From a virus: DNA of 64,000 bases. Shown in pieces: positions 35,533-53,056 of the stretch. Within the stretch, counting starts at the first letter, position 1, and the number at the start of each line of letters is the position of its first letter. The position numbers were made by a program, and so were the translations under genes. The stretch covers positions 1-64,000 of the IMG/VR virus record IMGVR_UViG_3300008952_003220; one strand, written 5' to 3'. Under the pieces are notes generated by a model. That model made no database searches and was not told the origin of the DNA. It saw only the letters and a program-made list of their open reading frames with translations.

Positions 35533-35830
35533 CTTTGCAAAGATAAAGCTAGAAACATGCCATCAAGACCCTATCTGTTTTTCTTCCCCCAAAGAGCTTA
35601 AAAAAATATTAAGTGAAACTAATGAAAAAATACATACCGGTGTGATAGAATTTACATGTAATGAGGGGTCTAGGCCTCTTGTTGATGAACGTGGATATAC
35701 ACAAATGTCTTCTTTGGTCTTTGATCAGACGCATTCAGATGCTATTATATCCGCTTTTAAAGATGTTTTTCTGAGGGGGAAAAATGAAAACCAATCTATC
35801 GAGCCTGTTTCAGACACAAAAGCAGTTTAA
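35507..35830 (+). CDS. Hypothetical protein
   Basis: The 107-residue protein overlaps the dUTPase gene by 26 bases and the next gene by 47 bases. It is mixed alpha/beta with two cysteines near residue 20 and no recognised motif. The large overlap at its end, where the next gene has its own GAGGGGG ribosome site, suggests its C-terminus is unconstrained or coupling is used. Function unknown. Confidence 0.5.
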   Translation: MSASIKDTSFAKIKLETCHQDPICFSSPKELKKILSETNEKIHTGVIEFTCNEGSRPLVDERGYTQMSSLVFDQTHSDAIISAFKDVFLRGKNENQSIEPVSDTKAV

Positions 35831-36731
35831 TGATCTATTTTTCAATAGAGATAACTTAAGTCAAATTGAAAAAGAGGAGATTACTAAGTCGCTATCTTTG
35901 GCATTGCACTCTGAGATATCTTCAATGATATCTGGAATTAACTTTAAGGATCATAAGTGCAGCCGAATCGAGATAGACGTCAATAAGATTCTTTACGAGT
36001 CGGTCGATGCATTCAGATATATCATAGCAATTATGAACCTTTGGGGAATATCTCATGATCAATTTACTGATGCATTTGATGATAAGGATCTCTACCTCAA
36101 GACCTGTCACAAGATAGAAAGAAATACCTGGGACGGTCGACCTGTCTTGATAGTCGACATGGATGATGTCATCGTTGGATTTAGAGATGGATTTATTGGA
36201 TGGCTTCGAGATAGATACGCTGTTCATGTGGATCCAGAATGTCCAGAGTACTATACTACCACCGCAGTGAAGGAAAAGGGTCTTAATCCGGAGTCAGTTT
36301 TCTTTAGCTTTATTTCTGAAAGAAAACTTCGAGATCTAGAGCCGATCGGAAACATGATTCAAATTTTAAATAAGCTTCACGATTTAGGATACTGGATTCA
36401 GCTGCTTACAGCTCGACCTGAGGAGAATCTTCTCTGTTGTTATGATACATACAGATGGCTTGAGTCATCTGGCCTAAAGTATGATAGGCTTAACTTTAGC
36501 GGAGAAAAATATCGATGGCTTGCTCAGTCAGAATATTATGATACTGGGTCAATCGTTTGTGCCATTGATGATTCGCCTAAGCACTCTGCAGAGTATGCCA
36601 AGCATGGTATCAACGTTATCTCCCCTTTGACATCTTATAATAGAGAGCTTGAAACTGTTGATAGGGTCAGGTTTTATGCTGATGATTCAGATGTTTTAGA
36701 GATGATAAGGGAATTATCAAAAAACGTGTAG
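35784..36731 (+). CDS. Fusion: dUTPase/MazG-like domain plus 5'(3')-deoxyribonucleotidase
   Basis: Residues 1-110 resemble the all-alpha NTP pyrophosphohydrolase fold (LALHSEISSMISGINF, then KILYESVDAFRYIIAIMNLW, with paired acidic residues). From about residue 118 follows a HAD nucleotidase: VLIVDMDDVIVGFRDGF (nucleophile Asp at about 124), LLTARPEEN and IDDSPKHSAEYAKHG. The fused protein could take a dNTP to the dNMP and then to the nucleoside. It lies between dUTPase and ThyX, so a pyrimidine pool role is likely. The fusion is unusual. Confidence 0.75.
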   Translation: MKTNLSSLFQTQKQFNDLFFNRDNLSQIEKEEITKSLSLALHSEISSMISGINFKDHKCSRIEIDVNKILYESVDAFRYIIAIMNLWGISHDQFTDAFDDKDLYLKTCHKIERNTWDGRPVLIVDMDDVIVGFRDGFIGWLRDRYAVHVDPECPEYYTTTAVKEKGLNPESVFFSFISERKLRDLEPIGNMIQILNKLHDLGYWIQLLTARPEENLLCCYDTYRWLESSGLKYDRLNFSGEKYRWLAQSEYYDTGSIVCAIDDSPKHSAEYAKHGINVISPLTSYNRELETVDRVRFYADDSDVLEMIRELSKNV

Positions 36732-37355: not shown

Positions 37356-37380
37356 ATTTTATTACCACATGAGGAGAAAA

Positions 37381-38355
37381 ATGCCCCAAAATAAAAATCT
37401 AGAACCCGTTAATCTTCCAATGACACTAAGATTTGATGAGGAGCCTACTACAGAGTTTCTTAATGATCTAGATGCCTTAACCATTGAGCTAGTAGATCAT
37501 CCTACAGCTGAGCAGATGAGAGACGTTGCTTGGAGGTACGTGAAGGCAACCTGGGCAGATGACCCAGACTTTACAAATCCATCAGGTGTATCACAGGAGG
37601 ACCTAAGTGAAAATCTTGAGGACGTTCTTTGTTTTCGAGCCTTACCGACCCCGATGGAGATTTTTAGCTTTACATTTAAGTTTGCAGGAATTGATCTCCA
37701 GACAGTGACTCATCTTATTCGTCACCGAGCAGGCTCGTGGGCAGCACAGTGCACAGGGGACAGGTTTCTTCATCACGAGCCCTGTCTCGTTCCAAGCGCT
37801 GTCGAGAACAGTCCAGACCTTTATCGTCGATGGAAGCGTCATGTAGAGGATGCTAAGCAGCTTTACGCAGACATGGTTGATACCCGTCAGATCTCAATGA
37901 TGGATGCAAGAACCATTCTTCCCAAGTGTCTCTCAACATTCTACTACGGTCGCTTCAATCTCAAGGACATCATCGGCTTTGTCAAGCAGCGCTCAGACAA
38001 GCAGATCCAACCTTCAGTTGATAATCTTATTGCTGCTAAGATGGCTGCAGAGATTATCAAGGTTCTTCCTGAGGCAAGTGCTGTAATTGGAACAAGGACA
38101 CTCACAAGCCCGGCATGGCACTATATCAAGAATGTTCGTGCTGGAACCGGAACTAATCTTTACTGGCCAGATGATGACAGTGATGAGCACATTGAATATC
38201 ATCCAAATGATACAATCTATCAGGCTCATCGATATGATCTAAATGGAACAAATCCATCTGATGATGAGGCTGATGGAAACACTAAGTTTAGACAGATGTG
38301 GAACAGTCTAATAGAAGAAATCTCTATACTTGAAGCGATGTACAGGGATTCTTAA
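37381..38355 (+). CDS. thyX: Divergent flavin-dependent thymidylate synthase (ThyX-like)
   Basis: The start at ATG 37381 follows GAGGAG with good spacing; an in-frame ATG at 37369 overlaps that site. The 324-residue protein carries the ThyX signature in altered form: RHRAGSWAAQC at 37720-37752 (RHR plus seven residues, then Cys124 where the family has Ser), followed by TGDRF instead of the usual ARY. SMMDARTILPKCLSTFYYGR matches the ThyX region around the dUMP site. ThyX methylates dUMP using FAD, NADPH and methylenetetrahydrofolate. The changed motif raises the chance of a different nucleotide product. Confidence 0.78.
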   Translation: MPQNKNLEPVNLPMTLRFDEEPTTEFLNDLDALTIELVDHPTAEQMRDVAWRYVKATWADDPDFTNPSGVSQEDLSENLEDVLCFRALPTPMEIFSFTFKFAGIDLQTVTHLIRHRAGSWAAQCTGDRFLHHEPCLVPSAVENSPDLYRRWKRHVEDAKQLYADMVDTRQISMMDARTILPKCLSTFYYGRFNLKDIIGFVKQRSDKQIQPSVDNLIAAKMAAEIIKVLPEASAVIGTRTLTSPAWHYIKNVRAGTGTNLYWPDDDSDEHIEYHPNDTIYQAHRYDLNGTNPSDDEADGNTKFRQMWNSLIEEISILEAMYRDS

Positions 38356-38356
38356 A

Positions 38357-39160
38357 TTGAATCAAGACAACTTCCAGATCGGGAGCTGGCTCCGTGTTAA
38401 GGACGGAAGTGTTCTTACAAAGACGCTTCCCAGTGTCTTAGATTGCTTTTGTGAAAAACATCCCATGACGAGTGGTCCAGTAATAGATAGATTTGAAGAG
38501 GGAGAAGTTAGAAATATTGCCTTGTTTGGTCTTCCGGGATCTGGAACAACAGTCGTCTTACAAGTCGTTAATCACCTTGCTCCTAACAGAGCTGTAAGAT
38601 CTCATGAGTTCAAAGACACATGTCCTATGATTTTTAAGTTTAATAAAATATTTTATACAATTAGAAATCCATTTGATGTTTTTTCTTCTATGGCGAGAAG
38701 ATTTGTAGAAAACGATCCCTTAGTTGACTTTGATCGAGCAATGAAAGACTCACTTAGATTTATGAGATTTAATAAATATATTACCTCTATGAAAGGAATT
38801 ATAGATACACCTGATGTTGAAGTTTGCTTTTTAAGATACGAAGACTATTTTGACAATGAAGCAAAAAGGATAGAGGCCTTATCTAATTTTTTAAATCTTG
38901 ATTTAGACAATAATGAGATCTTAGAGATTGCCAGATTTTTTTCTGTAAACGAAAATATTAAAAGAGTGGAAAAAATATTTGGCAATCTAAATAGCACGGG
39001 TCCCAGACTTAAAGACAAAGAAAGTCAATTAAATTCAAATCACATAGGTCCATCAAGAGGCGCACCGGGTTCAGGGCAGAATCTAAGCAAAGAGATTCGA
39101 TCCATGATTTATGCAAAGCACCGGTGGTACTTTGATACCTTTAACTATGAAAATTTATAA
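38357..39160 (+). CDS. Sulfotransferase-like protein (first copy)
   Basis: The frame could start at TTG 38330, but TTG 38357 just after the thyX stop, with AGGGA upstream, fits better and gives 267 residues. It has the PAPS-binding loop NIALFGLPGSGTTVVLQVVN and the 3'-phosphate segment YTIRNPFDVFSSMARRF, as in sulfotransferases, plus FLRYEDYF and the late GPSRGAPGSG. Such enzymes move sulfate from PAPS to sugars or small molecules. The acceptor is unknown. A second related gene lies at 50539. Confidence 0.7.
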   Translation: MNQDNFQIGSWLRVKDGSVLTKTLPSVLDCFCEKHPMTSGPVIDRFEEGEVRNIALFGLPGSGTTVVLQVVNHLAPNRAVRSHEFKDTCPMIFKFNKIFYTIRNPFDVFSSMARRFVENDPLVDFDRAMKDSLRFMRFNKYITSMKGIIDTPDVEVCFLRYEDYFDNEAKRIEALSNFLNLDLDNNEILEIARFFSVNENIKRVEKIFGNLNSTGPRLKDKESQLNSNHIGPSRGAPGSGQNLSKEIRSMIYAKHRWYFDTFNYENL

Positions 39161-46514: not shown

Positions 46515-46544
46515 TTGAAAATTTAGCTGTCTATATGTTATAAT
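46515..46544 (+). promoter_or_regulatory. Strong sigma-70-type promoter giving a near-leaderless mRNA
   Basis: TTGAAA (46515-46520), an 18-base spacer and perfect TATAAT (46539-46544) precede ATG 46550 by only five bases. Transcription would start at or very near the ATG, and no Shine-Dalgarno exists, so the message is probably leaderless. Confidence 0.6.
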
Positions 46545-46549
46545 GTAGC

Positions 46550-47455
46550 ATGCTTAGATTTCCTACCGCTACGTTGTTCATTGAAGGCCCAGATTGTTCT
46601 GGTAAAACAAGTCTCATCAATCAGATTCACGCTGAGACAAAGTACTCGTGGCACATAATGGATCGGTCTCAGTTCTCTAGGAAGCTTTTCTGCGATCTTT
46701 ACAATAGAGTTGTACCTACAGCTAGCGATGATCTTTACTTTGAGATGGGAAATCTTAATAATCGATATGTCTTTTTGCTTCCACCGCTTGATGCGATCTT
46801 AAGTAGATTTGAAGACAGGGGTGATGAGTTACATGATAAAAAGTCTCTGATCCAGGTCTACAAGACATTTGGAAAGCATGTTGAGAGAATTAGGACTTTT
46901 CCAAACGTTACTGTGATATACGATGAGCCTTCGGTTAAAGATCTCTCGAAAAGGGTGTGTACATCGCTGCACTTCACTGAGAAGCCGCAGCTAAGAGAGG
47001 TATCAGATCAGGTCATTGATCTTGTAGCTGTTAGAGGCGATGAGTCATATCCTGTAAAGTTTACCCTATACGATGATGGCAAGTTTGAAGAAGCAGACCC
47101 AGAAATTTTAAATTATAAGCCTGAGTCAGAATATTATCAGAGAATATTTTCTGAGCTGCACAATAAGATCACTGATGAGCTAGCTGGAAAGAATGAGTAT
47201 GACAGAGTTGAGGATCACACCTCAAGAAGGTTTGTCTACTCTGATAGCACCTGTATCTCTTTTATTCAGGTGGGAATTAGAGATAGAATTATGGACTTTC
47301 ACGTTGTGATCCGTTCTACAGATGTTAAAGAGATTTTTCCCTATGATTTAAAGTTTTTGTACTATCTTGCTTCAACGTGTTTTAATAGGTTTAATGACGT
47401 GTGCAATGGTGTTAGATTGAGATTTGACTTAAACTCTGCGCACATTATAAGATAA
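46550..47455 (+). CDS. Fusion: thymidylate kinase-like domain plus ThyA-like C-terminal domain
   Basis: Residues 1-140 are a P-loop kinase like thymidylate kinase (LFIEGPDCSGKTSLINQ, and a lid-like region near residues 80-100). The C-terminal part resembles the C-terminal half of thymidylate synthase ThyA: Cys235 in STCISFIQVG sits where ThyA has its catalytic PPCH cysteine, then FHVVIRSTDVKE (ThyA R-S-x-D), PYDLKFLYYLA and FDLNSAHII (like GDAHLY). The N-terminal half of ThyA is missing or replaced. It could couple dUMP/dCMP modification with phosphorylation. No RBS is seen. Confidence 0.65.
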   Translation: MLRFPTATLFIEGPDCSGKTSLINQIHAETKYSWHIMDRSQFSRKLFCDLYNRVVPTASDDLYFEMGNLNNRYVFLLPPLDAILSRFEDRGDELHDKKSLIQVYKTFGKHVERIRTFPNVTVIYDEPSVKDLSKRVCTSLHFTEKPQLREVSDQVIDLVAVRGDESYPVKFTLYDDGKFEEADPEILNYKPESEYYQRIFSELHNKITDELAGKNEYDRVEDHTSRRFVYSDSTCISFIQVGIRDRIMDFHVVIRSTDVKEIFPYDLKFLYYLASTCFNRFNDVCNGVRLRFDLNSAHIIR

Positions 47456-47477: not shown

Positions 47478-48494
47478 ATGAAAAAGAAAGCATTGGTGAC
47501 AGGCGGCTGCGGATTTATTGGATCAAATCTATCAAAGAGTCTTGTAGAAGATGGGTGGACTGTTGATATAGTCGATGACATGTCATCAGGAGATCTAAAC
47601 CTTCTCTCAGGGACCAGCATGCGCGTTGTTCCTATTGATCTATTGAGAAACTATTTTGAATCCCCGGCAGCAGAAAAGAGAGAGACTGACCAGCTTTTAG
47701 TCATCCAGGGTGATTTCTCTCACCAAAATACGCTGACGCTAATCAGGGAGGGCAGATATGACGTTGTCTTTCACCAAGCAGCTATTCCAAGAGTTTCATT
47801 TTCTGTTGAGAATCCATCAGCTACGACAGATGTCAACGTAGCTTCTACAGTTAGATTGTTTGAAGCCTGCATAGACAATGTCAAGAGGATTGTTTGGGCA
47901 TCTTCCTCTTCTGTTTACGGTGGAGCTGATGTCATGCCAACGCCGACTACTGCACCAAGAAATCCCAAGTCACCATATGCTTGGCAAAAATCTACCATAG
48001 AAGATCTATCTAAGATGTTTTGTAATCTTTATGATATCGATATCGTCTGTCTGCGCTATTTTAATGTCTTTGGTCCGGGACAGCTAGCTGGAAGCCCCTA
48101 TTCCACAGCAGTTTCTGCTTGGTGTCACGCAATTAAGAATGATCTTCCCCTAAGAAGCGATGGAGACGGAACACAAAGCCGTGATCTGTGCTACGTTGAT
48201 AATGTTGTCAGTGCTAACATTCTTGCTGCTATTTCTGATACTGTTTTTTCCGGAAAGGCATACAATGTTTGTTGTGGAGATAGAACAAGCAATCGTGAGA
48301 TTCTGAACTTTTTAACTGAGAGATTTCCTGGTATAGATATAGAGGATGCCCCTTGGCGAACAGGAGATGTCATGCACACACAAGGTGATTGGTCTGCAGC
48401 AAACATTGATTTTGGATATGAACCTTTGGTAAAGTTTTGGCAAGGGATAGAGAGAACATTAGAGTGGTGGGAATTAAAAGAAGATGAGTTATGA
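47478..48494 (+). CDS. NAD-dependent sugar epimerase/dehydratase (extended SDR)
   Basis: The 338-residue protein has the NAD-binding GGCGFIGSNL (residues about 8-17), VDDMSSG, FHQAAIPRVSFS, the active-site ASSSSVYG and SPYAWQKS (Tyr and Lys of YxxxK), and RYFNVFGPGQ. These are typical of UDP-glucose 4-epimerase-like enzymes acting on nucleotide sugars. AAGGAG precedes the ATG. Together with the cupin isomerase next to it and two sulfotransferases it suggests glycan remodelling or decoration. Confidence 0.85.
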   Translation: MKKKALVTGGCGFIGSNLSKSLVEDGWTVDIVDDMSSGDLNLLSGTSMRVVPIDLLRNYFESPAAEKRETDQLLVIQGDFSHQNTLTLIREGRYDVVFHQAAIPRVSFSVENPSATTDVNVASTVRLFEACIDNVKRIVWASSSSVYGGADVMPTPTTAPRNPKSPYAWQKSTIEDLSKMFCNLYDIDIVCLRYFNVFGPGQLAGSPYSTAVSAWCHAIKNDLPLRSDGDGTQSRDLCYVDNVVSANILAAISDTVFSGKAYNVCCGDRTSNREILNFLTERFPGIDIEDAPWRTGDVMHTQGDWSAANIDFGYEPLVKFWQGIERTLEWWELKEDEL

Positions 48495-48912
48495 TACTAA
48501 AAAACATGTTAAGTCTTCATGGGTTTCAAGTGGAAACAATGGTCGGATTACTGAGAAACCCTGGGGATATGAGACATCTTGGGCTGGATTCGATGGAATT
48601 CATGGAAAGACTCTTTTTATATGTGAGGGAAAGAGAACCAGCCTAAAGTATCACACATTAAAATCAGAGGTGCTTTTTGTTAGATCTGGTCGTGCTGAGG
48701 TTGAATTCGGAGATGAGCTTTCTTTAACAGACCCAGTGGGACATCCTTTTAAAAAGGAAACTGTAACGCCAGGAAGCTGCTTACTAGCTCAAAGCGGATC
48801 ACCCTATAGAATAAAAGCTTTAACAGATTGTGAGATAATAGAAATAGGAAATCACCTTAGTGACAAACCTATTAGAATAGAGGATGACTATGGCAGAGCT
48901 AACTCAGAATAA
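48484..48912 (+). CDS. Cupin-type phosphomannose isomerase-like protein
   Basis: The 142-residue protein overlaps the epimerase end by 11 bases. TEKPWGYETSWAGFDGIHG and LKYHTLKSEVLFVRSGRAEV give the cupin metal region of type II mannose-6-phosphate isomerases and ManC C-termini, and TPGSCLLAQSGSPYRIKAL gives the second cupin motif. It would interconvert a sugar phosphate or bind a nucleotide sugar. It has only the cupin domain, without the guanylyltransferase part. Confidence 0.75.
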   Translation: MSYDTKKHVKSSWVSSGNNGRITEKPWGYETSWAGFDGIHGKTLFICEGKRTSLKYHTLKSEVLFVRSGRAEVEFGDELSLTDPVGHPFKKETVTPGSCLLAQSGSPYRIKALTDCEIIEIGNHLSDKPIRIEDDYGRANSE

Positions 48913-49471
48913 AAGGCAACCTGAATTTATTATATTTACGGGTCCGATGTTCGGGTCTAAGACAACTAAACTGCTGGCAGTTGTAGATAGATTTAGATAT
49001 CAGAAAAGAAAGGTCTTTGCATTTAAGCCCAAGATGGACGACAGGTATTCAAATACTGAGATAGTTACCCACTCTGGGGGAAAGATCGAAGCTGTCGGCA
49101 TCAGCACGGGAAATGAGGTTATATCGTTTTTACAGGATCTAGATGAGATGCCAGATGTGATTGCTGTGGACGAAGCTTTTATGATAGATGACATTTCTGA
49201 AGTTTTAGTCTATCTATTCAGGGGCGGAATTACTATCGTTGTTTCTTCATTGCAGCTGTCAGCAACAGGAAAGCCTTTTGAGGAGGTTAGGGATATGATG
49301 CCGTATGCTACAAAGATTGAAATCTGCCCAGCAGTTTGTACAATTTCAGGAGATGATGCATACTATACACATCGAAAGCTTGAAACTATTGATGAAATTA
49401 TTGTTGGGGGCGAAGAGCTATATGAGCCTAGATGTTGGAAGTATCACAGTTTCTTTAATATAGAGGGATAA
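48884..49471 (+). CDS. tk: Thymidine kinase (type II)
   Basis: The 195-residue enzyme has the P-loop TGPMFGSKTTKLL, with G-S order instead of the usual S-G before the Lys, DEAFMID as Walker B-like segment, and a lasso/zinc region with cysteines in CPAVCT and PRCWK. RKL and VGGEELYEPRCW match the substrate loop of type II thymidine kinases. It phosphorylates thymidine to dTMP for salvage. The start overlaps the cupin gene by 29 bases; a second ATG at 48890 is equally possible. Confidence 0.85.
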   Translation: MTMAELTQNKRQPEFIIFTGPMFGSKTTKLLAVVDRFRYQKRKVFAFKPKMDDRYSNTEIVTHSGGKIEAVGISTGNEVISFLQDLDEMPDVIAVDEAFMIDDISEVLVYLFRGGITIVVSSLQLSATGKPFEEVRDMMPYATKIEICPAVCTISGDDAYYTHRKLETIDEIIVGGEELYEPRCWKYHSFFNIEG

Positions 49472-50538: not shown

Positions 50539-51630
50539 ATGAATGATGATAAATTAAAAGATATTTTAAGAATAGCAAGAGACTATGGGTTTTGTATTGT
50601 TCCTGATGACAATGAAGTTCTTGCTATTAATCATCACACTGTTGGAGGCAGTTTTAGCCAGAAACTAGGCTATCTTGAAATAGATCCAGTTTCATTTTTT
50701 TCATCATTACAAGTATTGGGCACTGTATCATCTTGTCTCGAAAAAAAGAAAGAAGTATTTATTCATTCTCTACCTAGATCAGGAGGAAACCACCTACATG
50801 CCACACTTCATTATCATCCTGAAGTTTTTTGTCTTTCTGAAAGAGAAGATCCCAGAAACAATAGTGCACAAGATGTCTTTGGAAAATTTAGTCCTATAAC
50901 ATTCTATAAGATGATTAGCTCAAAATGTCTTGTCTGGAAAGTTACTGGTGTCAGAGATCCATCTTTGATTATTTACTTTGACAAAGTGTGTAAAGATCAT
51001 GTTTCTATTTTTAATTTTAGGCACCCTTACTTGGTATTTTTATCAGCTAAGCGGGAAGAACTAAAGGGAAATAGCTCATATCACTGGCTCAAAGAAAGCT
51101 GGCCTAATCGTCCCAATTTGCTAAGCATAGTTTGTGATTATTTTAAAAATATAAAACAGTCACATTTAATCAATCCTGATCGAAAAATAACCTATCAAGA
51201 GATATGTGCTGCGCAGGCACTACAGCTAAGTCACATATCTTATGCAATAAATAGAGGAATTACTTCTACTATAGCATTTCATGAAGAATTGCTAGCTAAT
51301 AAAGATAAAATGGAATCAATTTATAATACTCTAGGGCTAGCTTGTGACTCTCAGGTTTATTCTTTTAAAGCATTTATTAGTGATATGCAGGAGAAGAATA
51401 GTGATGACTATGATATCTCTGATGGACTTATAGGATTTGGAGGCTACAATCCCGAACGTAAGATTTTGCTTAAAGATGAGATTAACATTTTAAATGAGAA
51501 TCGGCATGATGCGGAAATGATGATTGATCTTGTTTGTGAATTTTCAAAAAAAAATAATGTTGATGAAGAGGTTATTTTTAAATTTAGAGAATTTTATCTG
51601 GAAAAGATTAATAACTTGGAACAAAGATGA
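50539..51630 (+). CDS. Sulfotransferase-like protein (second copy)
   Basis: The 363-residue protein has the P-loop-type PAPS site FIHSLPRSGGNHLHATLHYH (residues about 75-94) and VSIFNFRHPYLVFLSAKREE as the 3'-phosphate segment. It differs from the gene at 38357 in length and detail, so the pair are not a recent duplication. The acceptor is unknown. The gene ends in a four-base ATGA overlap with dCMP deaminase. No clear RBS is seen before ATG 50539. Confidence 0.65.
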   Translation: MNDDKLKDILRIARDYGFCIVPDDNEVLAINHHTVGGSFSQKLGYLEIDPVSFFSSLQVLGTVSSCLEKKKEVFIHSLPRSGGNHLHATLHYHPEVFCLSEREDPRNNSAQDVFGKFSPITFYKMISSKCLVWKVTGVRDPSLIIYFDKVCKDHVSIFNFRHPYLVFLSAKREELKGNSSYHWLKESWPNRPNLLSIVCDYFKNIKQSHLINPDRKITYQEICAAQALQLSHISYAINRGITSTIAFHEELLANKDKMESIYNTLGLACDSQVYSFKAFISDMQEKNSDDYDISDGLIGFGGYNPERKILLKDEINILNENRHDAEMMIDLVCEFSKKNNVDEEVIFKFREFYLEKINNLEQR

Positions 51631-52037
51631 GACTACATCGACCTAGCTGGGATAAAATTTGGATGCAATTTGCTCAGTCAATATCAACAAGATCCTGTGA
51701 TCCGCGTCATCAGGTTGGGGCAATCATAGTGACAGATGATAATACTCAAGTCCTGGCTATCGGATACAATGGAGATCAAAAAGGAGGATCTAATGCAATA
51801 GAGTCATTGGAGCCCGGTCAGTCAGGCTTTATTCATGCTGAAATTAACGCTCTAATAAAGTGTGACTACAACAACCCTAAGAGAAAGATTATGTATGTAA
51901 CACTTTCACCCTGTAAGATGTGTGCAAAGTCAATTGTAAATTCTGGTATTAGTGAGGTTATCTACTTTGAAGATTACAGATCTGATGAGGGAGTTCGACT
52001 TTTATCTGAATTGGGGATTCTTGTTAGAAAATTCTAA
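51627..52037 (+). CDS. Deoxycytidylate (dCMP) deaminase
   Basis: The 136-residue enzyme has the zinc-dependent cytidine deaminase signature: FIHAEINALIKC (His ligand and catalytic Glu) and LSPCKMCAKSIVNSGI (two Cys ligands), with STRSCDPRHQVGAII near the N-terminus typical of phage dCMP deaminases. It converts dCMP to dUMP for thymidylate synthesis. It belongs functionally with ThyX, Tk and the Tmk/ThyA-like fusion. Confidence 0.88.
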   Translation: MRLHRPSWDKIWMQFAQSISTRSCDPRHQVGAIIVTDDNTQVLAIGYNGDQKGGSNAIESLEPGQSGFIHAEINALIKCDYNNPKRKIMYVTLSPCKMCAKSIVNSGISEVIYFEDYRSDEGVRLLSELGILVRKF

Positions 52038-52082: not shown

Positions 52083-52364
52083 ATGAGAGTTAAAAAGAAA
52101 AAGCTTTTAGATTTGATTTCACTTCTTATTGAAGGAAATCAAGATGCTATTGAAGAGAAGCTTAGTGTATTTGCAGGTCCAAAGGATTCTAGAAGTATTA
52201 TAATAAGTAACGGCTTAAAGATAAGACATACAGATTCTGGCCTTGTTTACACAGTTGATAGGGTTTTATTTACACCCGGTGGAAATCCAGAAATAAGATG
52301 CACTCGTCCTGGGTGGTCCATAGTTATTACAGCAGATGAATTCAAGGATTATGAGAGGCACTAA
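52083..52364 (+). CDS. Small protein with tag-like N-terminus
   Basis: Starting at ATG 52083 (a GTG two codons earlier is also in frame), the 93-residue protein opens with MRVKKKKLLDLISLLIEG, a basic amphipathic helix like the tags elsewhere in the window. The rest is a small beta-rich domain (GLKIRHTDSGLVYTVDRVLF, then RCTRPGWSIVITADEF). Function unknown. It overlaps the SOD-like gene by one base. Confidence 0.5.
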   Translation: MRVKKKKLLDLISLLIEGNQDAIEEKLSVFAGPKDSRSIIISNGLKIRHTDSGLVYTVDRVLFTPGGNPEIRCTRPGWSIVITADEFKDYERH

Positions 52365-53056
52365 TGTCATTTACCAATAAAGATCTTAAAGAAAACATAA
52401 GAAAGTCTTTAAGCTTTGATCAAGATAAAGAGCAGCTTGCTGAAGCCTACGTTGCCCAACAGAAACAGTTTAATCTTTCAACTGAGCTTTTAAGCCAGGC
52501 TAACAAAGATAATCATATTGAGCTTTATCAGAAGTACATTGAGAATTTTAATAGAATAAGTGCTGAGCTAGACACAGCAGATAGATCTGATGTTAATTCA
52601 AATAATTCTCAATATAGATCTCTTAAGATAGATGAGACATATAACATGAATGCTGCTTATCTTCATGAGCTCTATTTTGCTAACATTAGTGATCTTCACA
52701 GTGAGATAGCAATGGACTCTTTATCATATATGAGACTCTCTAGAGATTTTGGAACTTTTGATGCTTGGCAGAAGGACTTTATAGCGTGCTGCTCAGCATC
52801 CCGATGTGGCTGGGCTATGACATATCTAAATACATACACACAGAGCTATATGAATGTTCCAGTTGATCTTCATAGTCTTGAGGTTCCAGTCGGATGCTAT
52901 CCGATCATTGTTATGGATGTATGGCAGCATGCATATTATAAAGACTATTTAAAGGATGTTAAGACATATACTTATGCAATGATGAAACAGCTAAATTGGC
53001 ATGTCATAGAGTCAAGATTTAGAAAGGCTGAGAACGTCTTGTTGGCATTGAGGTAA
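52364..53056 (+). CDS. Fe/Mn superoxide dismutase-like protein
   Basis: The 230-residue protein keeps the SOD metal-site pattern: His51 in NHIELYQKYIENFN, His101 in AAYLHELYFANIS, then CGWAMTYLN, and Asp185 and His189 in MDVWQHAYYKDY. The usual DVWEHAYY has Gln for Glu here. Enzymatic SOD removes superoxide; phage relatives may instead be virion proteins. About 45 extra residues at the N-terminus precede the SOD part. It overlaps both neighbours by one base and lies among tagged proteins. Confidence 0.75.
   Translation: MSFTNKDLKENIRKSLSFDQDKEQLAEAYVAQQKQFNLSTELLSQANKDNHIELYQKYIENFNRISAELDTADRSDVNSNNSQYRSLKIDETYNMNAAYLHELYFANISDLHSEIAMDSLSYMRLSRDFGTFDAWQKDFIACCSASRCGWAMTYLNTYTQSYMNVPVDLHSLEVPVGCYPIIVMDVWQHAYYKDYLKDVKTYTYAMMKQLNWHVIESRFRKAENVLLALR

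What the first reader, a model, noticed from the sequence alone, without database searches (positions are those of the whole stretch)
46550..47455. Thymidylate kinase fused to half of a ThyA-like domain
The N-terminus is a Tmk-like P-loop kinase, whereas residues about 225-301 follow the C-terminal half of ThyA: Cys235, R-S-x-D, N-S-A-H. ThyA-family proteins in phages include dUMP and dCMP hydroxymethylases. A kinase fused to a ThyA-like domain could make and phosphorylate a modified pyrimidine. The phage also has a divergent ThyX, so the ThyA-like domain is probably not a plain duplicate.
Basis: partly seen in the sequence, partly recalled or inferred. Interest (0 to 1): 0.72.

Follow-up and report, generated by a model that had tools for sequence, protein, structure and literature searches.

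The report
Phage kinase fused to mini-ThyA domain
A marine phage gene, kept in a whole group of large phages, joins a small nucleotide kinase to a cut-down thymidylate-synthase-type domain that keeps its catalytic cysteine and nucleotide-binding residues but has lost the part that holds the folate cofactor; the best guess is that it makes and activates an altered cytosine building block for phage DNA, which is unproven.

Summary
ORF 46550-47455 (301 aa) is a P-loop kinase of phage family phrog_761 (residues 1-139) fused to a ThyA-superfamily domain (about 145-301). Twenty non-redundant marine-virus homologs (35-59% identity) share the architecture and gene neighbourhood; Cys235 is invariant. 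The ThyA link is supported by profile comparison (E 6e-7; score 50.7 against at most 22.6 in 150 shuffles) and by a confident fold (pLDDT 92-93). Corrections: the domain is not half of ThyA but its whole core, trimmed. It lacks the small cofactor subdomain (E58 and W80 region) and the C-terminal tail. The kinase has also lost 22-36 residues between P-loop and DR motif, where dNMP kinases bind the acceptor. The ThyA Asn177 position is invariantly Asp (D266), the dCMP type. The nearest structure is not a hydroxymethylase but the flavin-dependent phage dCMP 5-hydroxylase AfhB. Related kinases and ThyA-type enzymes lie side by side in Pelagibacter phages and near each other in AfhB phages. Best explanation (about 0.4): a two-domain enzyme that changes C5 of dCMP and phosphorylates the product. 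Main rival: the ThyA pocket only holds the acceptor nucleotide for the kinase. No activity or modified base is shown. New variant of a known kind.

The parts
46550..47455 (+). Kinase-mini-ThyA fusion gene, 301 aa
   Evidence: 20 non-redundant full-length homologs, same length and ends
46550..46966 (+). N-terminal P-loop kinase domain (residues 1-139), phrog_761 type
   Evidence: 20/20 members; hhalign E 6e-16 to kinases of AfhB-bearing T4-like phages and Pelagibacter phages; YorR E 4e-6
46580..46609 (+). P-loop IEGPDCSGKT (residues 11-20)
   Evidence: G13, D15, G18, K19 invariant
46661..46669 (+). DRS motif (residues 38-40), 19 residues after the P-loop Lys; 41 in HTVC119P and 55 in the Mosigvirus kinase, so the NMP-binding segment is deleted
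46982..47452 (+). Mini-ThyA domain (residues 145-301): ThyA core without small cofactor subdomain and without C-terminal tail
   Evidence: fold; profiles
47186..47230 (+). G-x-N-x-Y-x-R-x-E-x3-S-R-R (residues 213-227): lineage-specific invariant insertion ending in the ThyA-type double Arg
   Evidence: model confidence there falls from about 92 to about 71 when the kinase is left out
47252..47254 (+). Cys235, counterpart of ThyA Cys146
   Evidence: invariant 20/20; 20 residues before the Arg, as in ThyA, dCMP hydroxymethylase and AfhB
47312..47317 (+). R255-S256, counterparts of ThyA R166-S167
   Evidence: invariant
47345..47347 (+). D266 at the ThyA N177 position (Asp = cytosine type)
   Evidence: invariant 20/20; same 11-residue spacing from R255; N177/D rule in PMC8670742
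47432..47443 (+). N-S-A-H (295-298); H298 = ThyA H207; the protein ends 2-3 residues later in every member
47478..48494 (+). NAD-dependent nucleotide-sugar epimerase, downstream of the fusion in every locus read (20/20, some with 1-2 genes between)
   Evidence: Pfam Epimerase E 5.9e-45
48484..48912 (+). Cupin, possibly a sugar isomerase
   Evidence: weak matches only
48884..49471 (+). Thymidine kinase
51627..52037 (+). dCMP deaminase
   Evidence: phrog_174 E 1.6e-43
37369..38355 (+). Divergent ThyX (flavin-dependent dTMP synthase)
   Evidence: Thy1 E 3.8e-17
35784..36731 (+). dUTPase_2 plus NT5C deoxynucleotidase fusion (possible removal of dUTP/dCTP)

Best explanation
A two-domain enzyme of pyrimidine deoxynucleotide metabolism. 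Shown: a kinase domain fused to a trimmed ThyA-superfamily domain whose nucleotide-binding and nucleophile positions are invariant. Inferred: the mini-ThyA domain binds dCMP (phosphate by R226/R227/R255, base by D266, sugar by H298). Cys235 adds to C6, which activates C5 for attack on an electrophile other than methylene-tetrahydrofolate, most likely an oxidised flavin, giving 5-hydroxy-dCMP as in AfhB. The adjoining kinase phosphorylates the product, so that the host finishes the triphosphate and the phage polymerase incorporates it. The neighbouring sugar-nucleotide genes might supply a later decoration.
For: Invariant C235, R226-R227, R255-S256, D266, H298 in 20/20 at ThyA-type spacings. 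Asp at position 177 marks cytosine substrates (PMC8670742). The nearest PDB structures to the whole protein and to the domain alone are 9iqu and 9iqc, phage dCMP hydroxylase AfhB (E 7e-7 and 2.6e-7). The only PDB sequences the domain profile reaches at E<10 are the AfhB structures (E 0.37-0.39, not significant alone). The profile score is higher to AfhB (43.9) than to dCMP hydroxymethylase (34.2) or ThyA (31.9). The core tree separates AfhB plus this family from the rest with 85% support. Kinases of the same phrog_761 lie two genes from AfhB in Mosigvirus and Lazarusvirus and overlap a ThyA-like gene in Pelagibacter phages. ThyX is present. An epimerase follows in all loci; AfhB phages also carry a cluster of sugar-modifying genes (PMC13390438).
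Against: The subdomain and tail that hold the cofactor in ThyA, and the conserved E..W helix that AfhB keeps, are absent, so no flavin or folate site can be pointed to. The kinase lacks the usual acceptor-binding segment. No glycosyltransferase of PF00534 or PF00535 in the 134.7-kb record, and no relative of the gene next to AfhB (without a positive control). AfhB, hydroxymethylase and ThyA differ only moderately in score, the comparison profiles hold just 2-4 sequences each, and 85% bootstrap on 70 sites is suggestive only. No modified base or activity shown.
Confidence: 0.4

Rival explanations
1. Composite kinase: the mini-ThyA domain has lost its own chemistry and serves as the acceptor-nucleotide pocket of a dNMP kinase that lost its own NMP-binding segment. 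It would be the phage's dTMP/dCMP-type monophosphate kinase.
For: The losses are complementary: kinase without acceptor segment, ThyA domain without cofactor segment. The surviving ThyA residues are mostly nucleotide-binding ones. No other Tmk-family gene passes in this record, although ThyX, TK and dCMP deaminase are present. The invariant insertion 213-227 is modelled confidently only with the kinase present, suggesting a tight interface.
Against: Invariant Cys235 is not needed for binding alone. In ThyA the nucleotide phosphate is buried by arginines. Asp266 predicts cytosine binding, not dTMP.
Confidence: 0.3
2. Folate-dependent dCMP (or dUMP) hydroxymethylase fused to its product kinase.
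For: ThyA superfamily membership; Cys and Asp as in T4 dCMP hydroxymethylase.
Against: The region with E60/E58 and W80 and the C-terminal tail are missing in all 20 members; no PF00303 match passes.
Confidence: 0.1
3. The ThyA-like part is a regulatory dNMP sensor that tunes an ordinary dNMP kinase.
For: Retained nucleotide-binding residues without a cofactor site.
Against: Conservation of the nucleophile; the domain (165-300) is at least as conserved as the kinase (51.7-52.3% against 45.5% mean pairwise identity).
Confidence: 0.12
4. A decaying, non-functional fusion or chance resemblance.
For: None beyond the trimmed outlines.
Against: 54 invariant residues over 20 members; shuffles never reach the score; conserved neighbourhood.
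Confidence: 0.02

Closest known systems
AfhB / 5-hydroxy-dCMP synthase of Mosigvirus-type phages (PDB 9iqu, 9iqc)
   Same: Best fold match; Cys, double Arg, RS, Asp at position 177 and S-A-H-V/I motif without the ThyA 'LG'; phrog_761 kinase and sugar genes nearby
   Different: AfhB is a stand-alone protein of about 235 aa with the N-terminal subdomain (Y-A-E-x-F-W helix); here that is absent and the kinase is fused in front
T4 dCMP hydroxymethylase (gp42)
   Same: Cys148 and Asp179 counterparts, RS motif
   Different: Keeps folate subdomain, E60 and C-terminal part; no kinase; lower profile score
Thymidylate synthase ThyA (PF00303)
   Same: Fold core, Cys146, R126/R127, R166, S167, H207 counterparts
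   Different: Asp instead of Asn177; no E58/W80 subdomain; no C-terminal tail; below PF00303 threshold
phrog_761 phage 'thymidylate kinases' (HTVC119P gp15, Mosigvirus kinase; distantly B. subtilis SPbeta YorR)
   Same: P-loop, DR motif, lid region; E 6e-16 by profile (E 4e-6 to YorR)
   Different: 22-36 residues of the acceptor-binding segment deleted; fused to the ThyA-type domain
Kinase and ThyA-like gene pair of Pelagibacter phages HTVC119P and HTVC200P
   Same: Same two families, adjacent and overlapping genes, Asp at position 177
   Different: Separate full-length proteins

Membership tests
ThyA-superfamily (by descent and fold) | ThyA core fold with significant profile similarity | tested here: met
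Thymidylate synthase (PF00303) as enzyme family | Match above family cut-off | tested here: not met
   (control genomes ring in 9 of 14)
Thymidylate synthase (PF00303) as enzyme family | Catalytic Cys and the phosphate arginines | tested here: met
   C235, R226, R227, R255 invariant
Thymidylate synthase (PF00303) as enzyme family | Asn177 (uracil specificity) | tested here: not met
   D266 in 20/20
Thymidylate synthase (PF00303) as enzyme family | Folate-site subdomain (E58, W80) and C-terminal tail | tested here: not met
   no such segment in sequence or model; protein ends 3 residues after H298
dCMP hydroxymethylase | Cys148 and Asp179 counterparts | tested here: met
dCMP hydroxymethylase | Glu60 and folate site | tested here: not met
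   segment absent; an unrecognised substitute Glu cannot be excluded
AfhB 5-hydroxy-dCMP synthase | Closest fold and core motif | tested here: met
   (specificity over hydroxymethylase only suggestive)
AfhB 5-hydroxy-dCMP synthase | N-terminal subdomain of AfhB | tested here: not met
AfhB 5-hydroxy-dCMP synthase | FAD-dependent dCMP 5-hydroxylation | not testable with these tools
   no assay; AfhB-flavin contacts could not be read here
phrog_761 / dNMP kinase | P-loop and DR motif | tested here: met
phrog_761 / dNMP kinase | NMP-binding segment between helix 1 and the DR strand | tested here: not met
   19 residues against 41 and 55
phrog_761 / dNMP kinase | dNMP kinase activity | not testable with these tools
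   needs an enzyme assay

The most novel reading that the evidence does not exclude
A new kind of composite enzyme: a ThyA-fold pocket stripped of its cofactor site and a P-loop kinase stripped of its acceptor site complete each other, so that a pyrimidine nucleotide held covalently or tightly by the ThyA-type domain is phosphorylated (on its 5'-phosphate or on a C5 substituent) by the fused kinase.
Probability: 0.2. Interest if true: 0.78.

Novelty: new variant of a known kind. Interest (0 to 1): 0.52.

Why it matters
If bifunctional, it would be the first ThyA-superfamily enzyme fused to a kinase that I could find, and an unusually small ThyA-type catalyst, showing which parts of the fold suffice for C5 chemistry without the folate site. 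It would also name a cytosine modification to look for in a group of large marine phages with no cultured member found here. If the ThyA part only binds, it shows an enzyme fold reused as the substrate pocket of another enzyme. Either way a single recombinant protein and a dCMP assay decides.

Tried and rejected
Plain ThyA and dCMP/dUMP hydroxymethylase (missing cofactor parts). Chance resemblance (shuffle and reversed controls; negative control of the kinase half against ThyA profiles). Weak Pfam hits to the window protein (Reov_VP3_GTase, tRNA_lig_kinase, Bul1_C) were either found in single members or not repeated across the family: dismissed. Bacterial genomes: the scan of 84,980 species gave no relative of the mini-ThyA domain. 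Cultured phages: no full-length match. Glycosyltransferase in the own record: none for PF00534/PF00535; some relatives have several, far from the fusion. Defence systems: nothing for the fusion. Literature: no description of such a fusion found in the held library; the preprint on 5-hydroxycytosine biosynthesis is not held.

Full report
What is there. The ORF at 46550-47455 (+) encodes 301 aa. Close and distant homologs occur in IMG/VR contigs; 20 non-redundant full-length members (the window protein included) align, with 36-59% identity to the window protein over the alignment and 54 invariant positions. All have both domains, the same start region (conserved Pro5) and end 2-3 residues after H298. 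One further member is intact (L069) and one is interrupted by a frameshift (L039). No relative of the C-terminal domain was found in one genome for each of 84,980 bacterial and archaeal species, and cultured phages hold only separate kinases. The family looks restricted to a group of large phages; two records reach 235.7 kb.

Kinase half. Residues 1-139 match phrog_761 'thymidylate kinase' in all 20 members. A profile comparison with the kinases of Mosigvirus, Lazarusvirus and Pelagibacter phages gives E 6e-16. P-loop (G13, D15, G18, K19), D38-R39-S40 and R86 are invariant, so the ATP site looks intact. The stretch between P-loop Lys and the DR motif is 19 residues, against 41 in HTVC119P and 55 in the Mosigvirus kinase (counted on the sequences). 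From general knowledge of this kinase class, that stretch carries much of the acceptor-nucleotide site. All members lack it.

ThyA half. Profile comparison to a mixed ThyA/hydroxymethylase/AfhB set gives E 6e-7 over 78 columns. The observed scores (31.9 to 50.7, depending on the comparison set) exceed 150 column shuffles (maximum 22.6) and the reversed profile; the kinase half gives nothing. AlphaFold models are confident (full length pLDDT 93.3, pTM 0.88; domain alone 91.6). Foldseek matches are led by AfhB, then MilA, ThyA and T4 dCMP hydroxymethylase. The order of elements (helix 148-161, strand 169-175, helix 193-212, strands 228-231, 236-244, 247-254, helix 263-280, strand 287-294) fits the ThyA core without its small subdomain and without the C-terminal tail. 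Assignment of the first helix and strand to ThyA is by order and by the span of the structural alignments, since coordinates could not be inspected. It is therefore a trimmed core rather than a half.

Active-site mapping. R226-R227, C235, R255-S256, D266 and H298 fall on ThyA R126-R127, C146, R166-S167, N177 and H207, with identical spacing C-to-R (20) and R-to-N/D (11). Aspartate at 177 marks cytosine-using members, as established for ThyA variants and found across modified-DNA contigs (PMC8670742). The ThyA 'L-G' after R-S-x-D is missing, as in AfhB. The folate side (E58, W80, tail) is missing. A lineage-specific insertion G213-x-N215-x-Y217-x-R219-x-E221 precedes the double Arg. It is modelled confidently in the full protein (about 92) but less so when the kinase is left out (about 71), which suggests that it packs on the kinase.

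Context. In every locus examined an NDP-sugar epimerase lies downstream (adjacent, or one to two genes away), DNA polymerase III alpha lies upstream (adjacent, or with intervening genes), and thymidine kinase, DHH phosphoesterase and dCMP deaminase follow in most. ThyX is present in the window and in all five related records tested; no other ThyA or Tmk-family gene passes in the own record. In jumbo phages ThyA-type synthases and ThyX are normally anticorrelated (PMC7824862), so having both fits a ThyA-type domain with another job. Kinases of the same phrog_761 lie two genes from the 5-hydroxy-dCMP synthase in Mosigvirus and Lazarusvirus; these phages carry sugar-modifying gene clusters (PMC13390438). 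In Pelagibacter phages a phrog_761 kinase overlaps a ThyA-like gene with Asp177. The fusion thus joins two families that keep company elsewhere.

Mechanism. The preferred reading is dCMP binding, Cys adduct at C6, C5 modification (5-hydroxylation by analogy with AfhB) and phosphorylation of the product by the fused kinase. Binding residues and nucleophile are shown as conserved; the chemistry, cofactor and kinase substrate are inferred. The chief difficulty is the absent cofactor subdomain. That makes the rival attractive in which the ThyA pocket replaces the lost acceptor site of the kinase. The invariant Cys speaks against a purely binding role; no result here decides. The closeness to AfhB rather than to hydroxymethylases rests on fold ranking, the only PDB sequence hits (E 0.37-0.39), profile score and an 85% split on 70 sites: consistent but individually weak.

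Verdict. New variant of a known kind.

Noticed in passing
window 44405 (N-terminus of the 702-aa ORF); many ORFs in L052-L054 (G000:C1 about 93-134 kb): Many otherwise unrelated proteins begin with nearly the same peptide of about 16-18 aa, MKITRRQLRRLIKEEL; it looks like a shared targeting tag, perhaps for packaging into the virion.
   Followed up: no
window 35784-36731: Fusion of a dUTPase_2 domain with an NT5C-type deoxynucleotidase; might clear dUTP/dCTP before replication.
   Followed up: no
window 46515-46549: Promoter-like site TTGAAA-18-TATAAT with TG in front ends 5 bases before the ATG of the fusion, with no obvious ribosome site: possibly a leaderless transcript. Consensus matches in the region are only slightly above chance.
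   Followed up: no
window 52364-53056: Superoxide dismutase C-terminal domain (PF02777, E 3.1e-16) in a phage protein, conserved close to dCMP deaminase in most relatives.
   Followed up: no
window 38330-39160 and 50539-51630: Sulfotransferase domain protein and a second weak sulfotransferase match.
   Followed up: no
L039:8922-9350: A gene that by eye resembles a cytidylyltransferase stands between the fusion and the epimerase in one relative; supports a sugar-nucleotide context.
   Followed up: no
L051:2231-3832 (G000:C1 about 65730-67331); IMPDH genes in L018:12511-13536, L025:5105-6127, L029:9921-10979: Phage-encoded Cpn60 chaperonin, and IMP dehydrogenase genes near the fusion in several relatives.
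   Followed up: no
L098 and L103 (record of L029): Two ThyX genes in one 235.7-kb relative.
   Followed up: no
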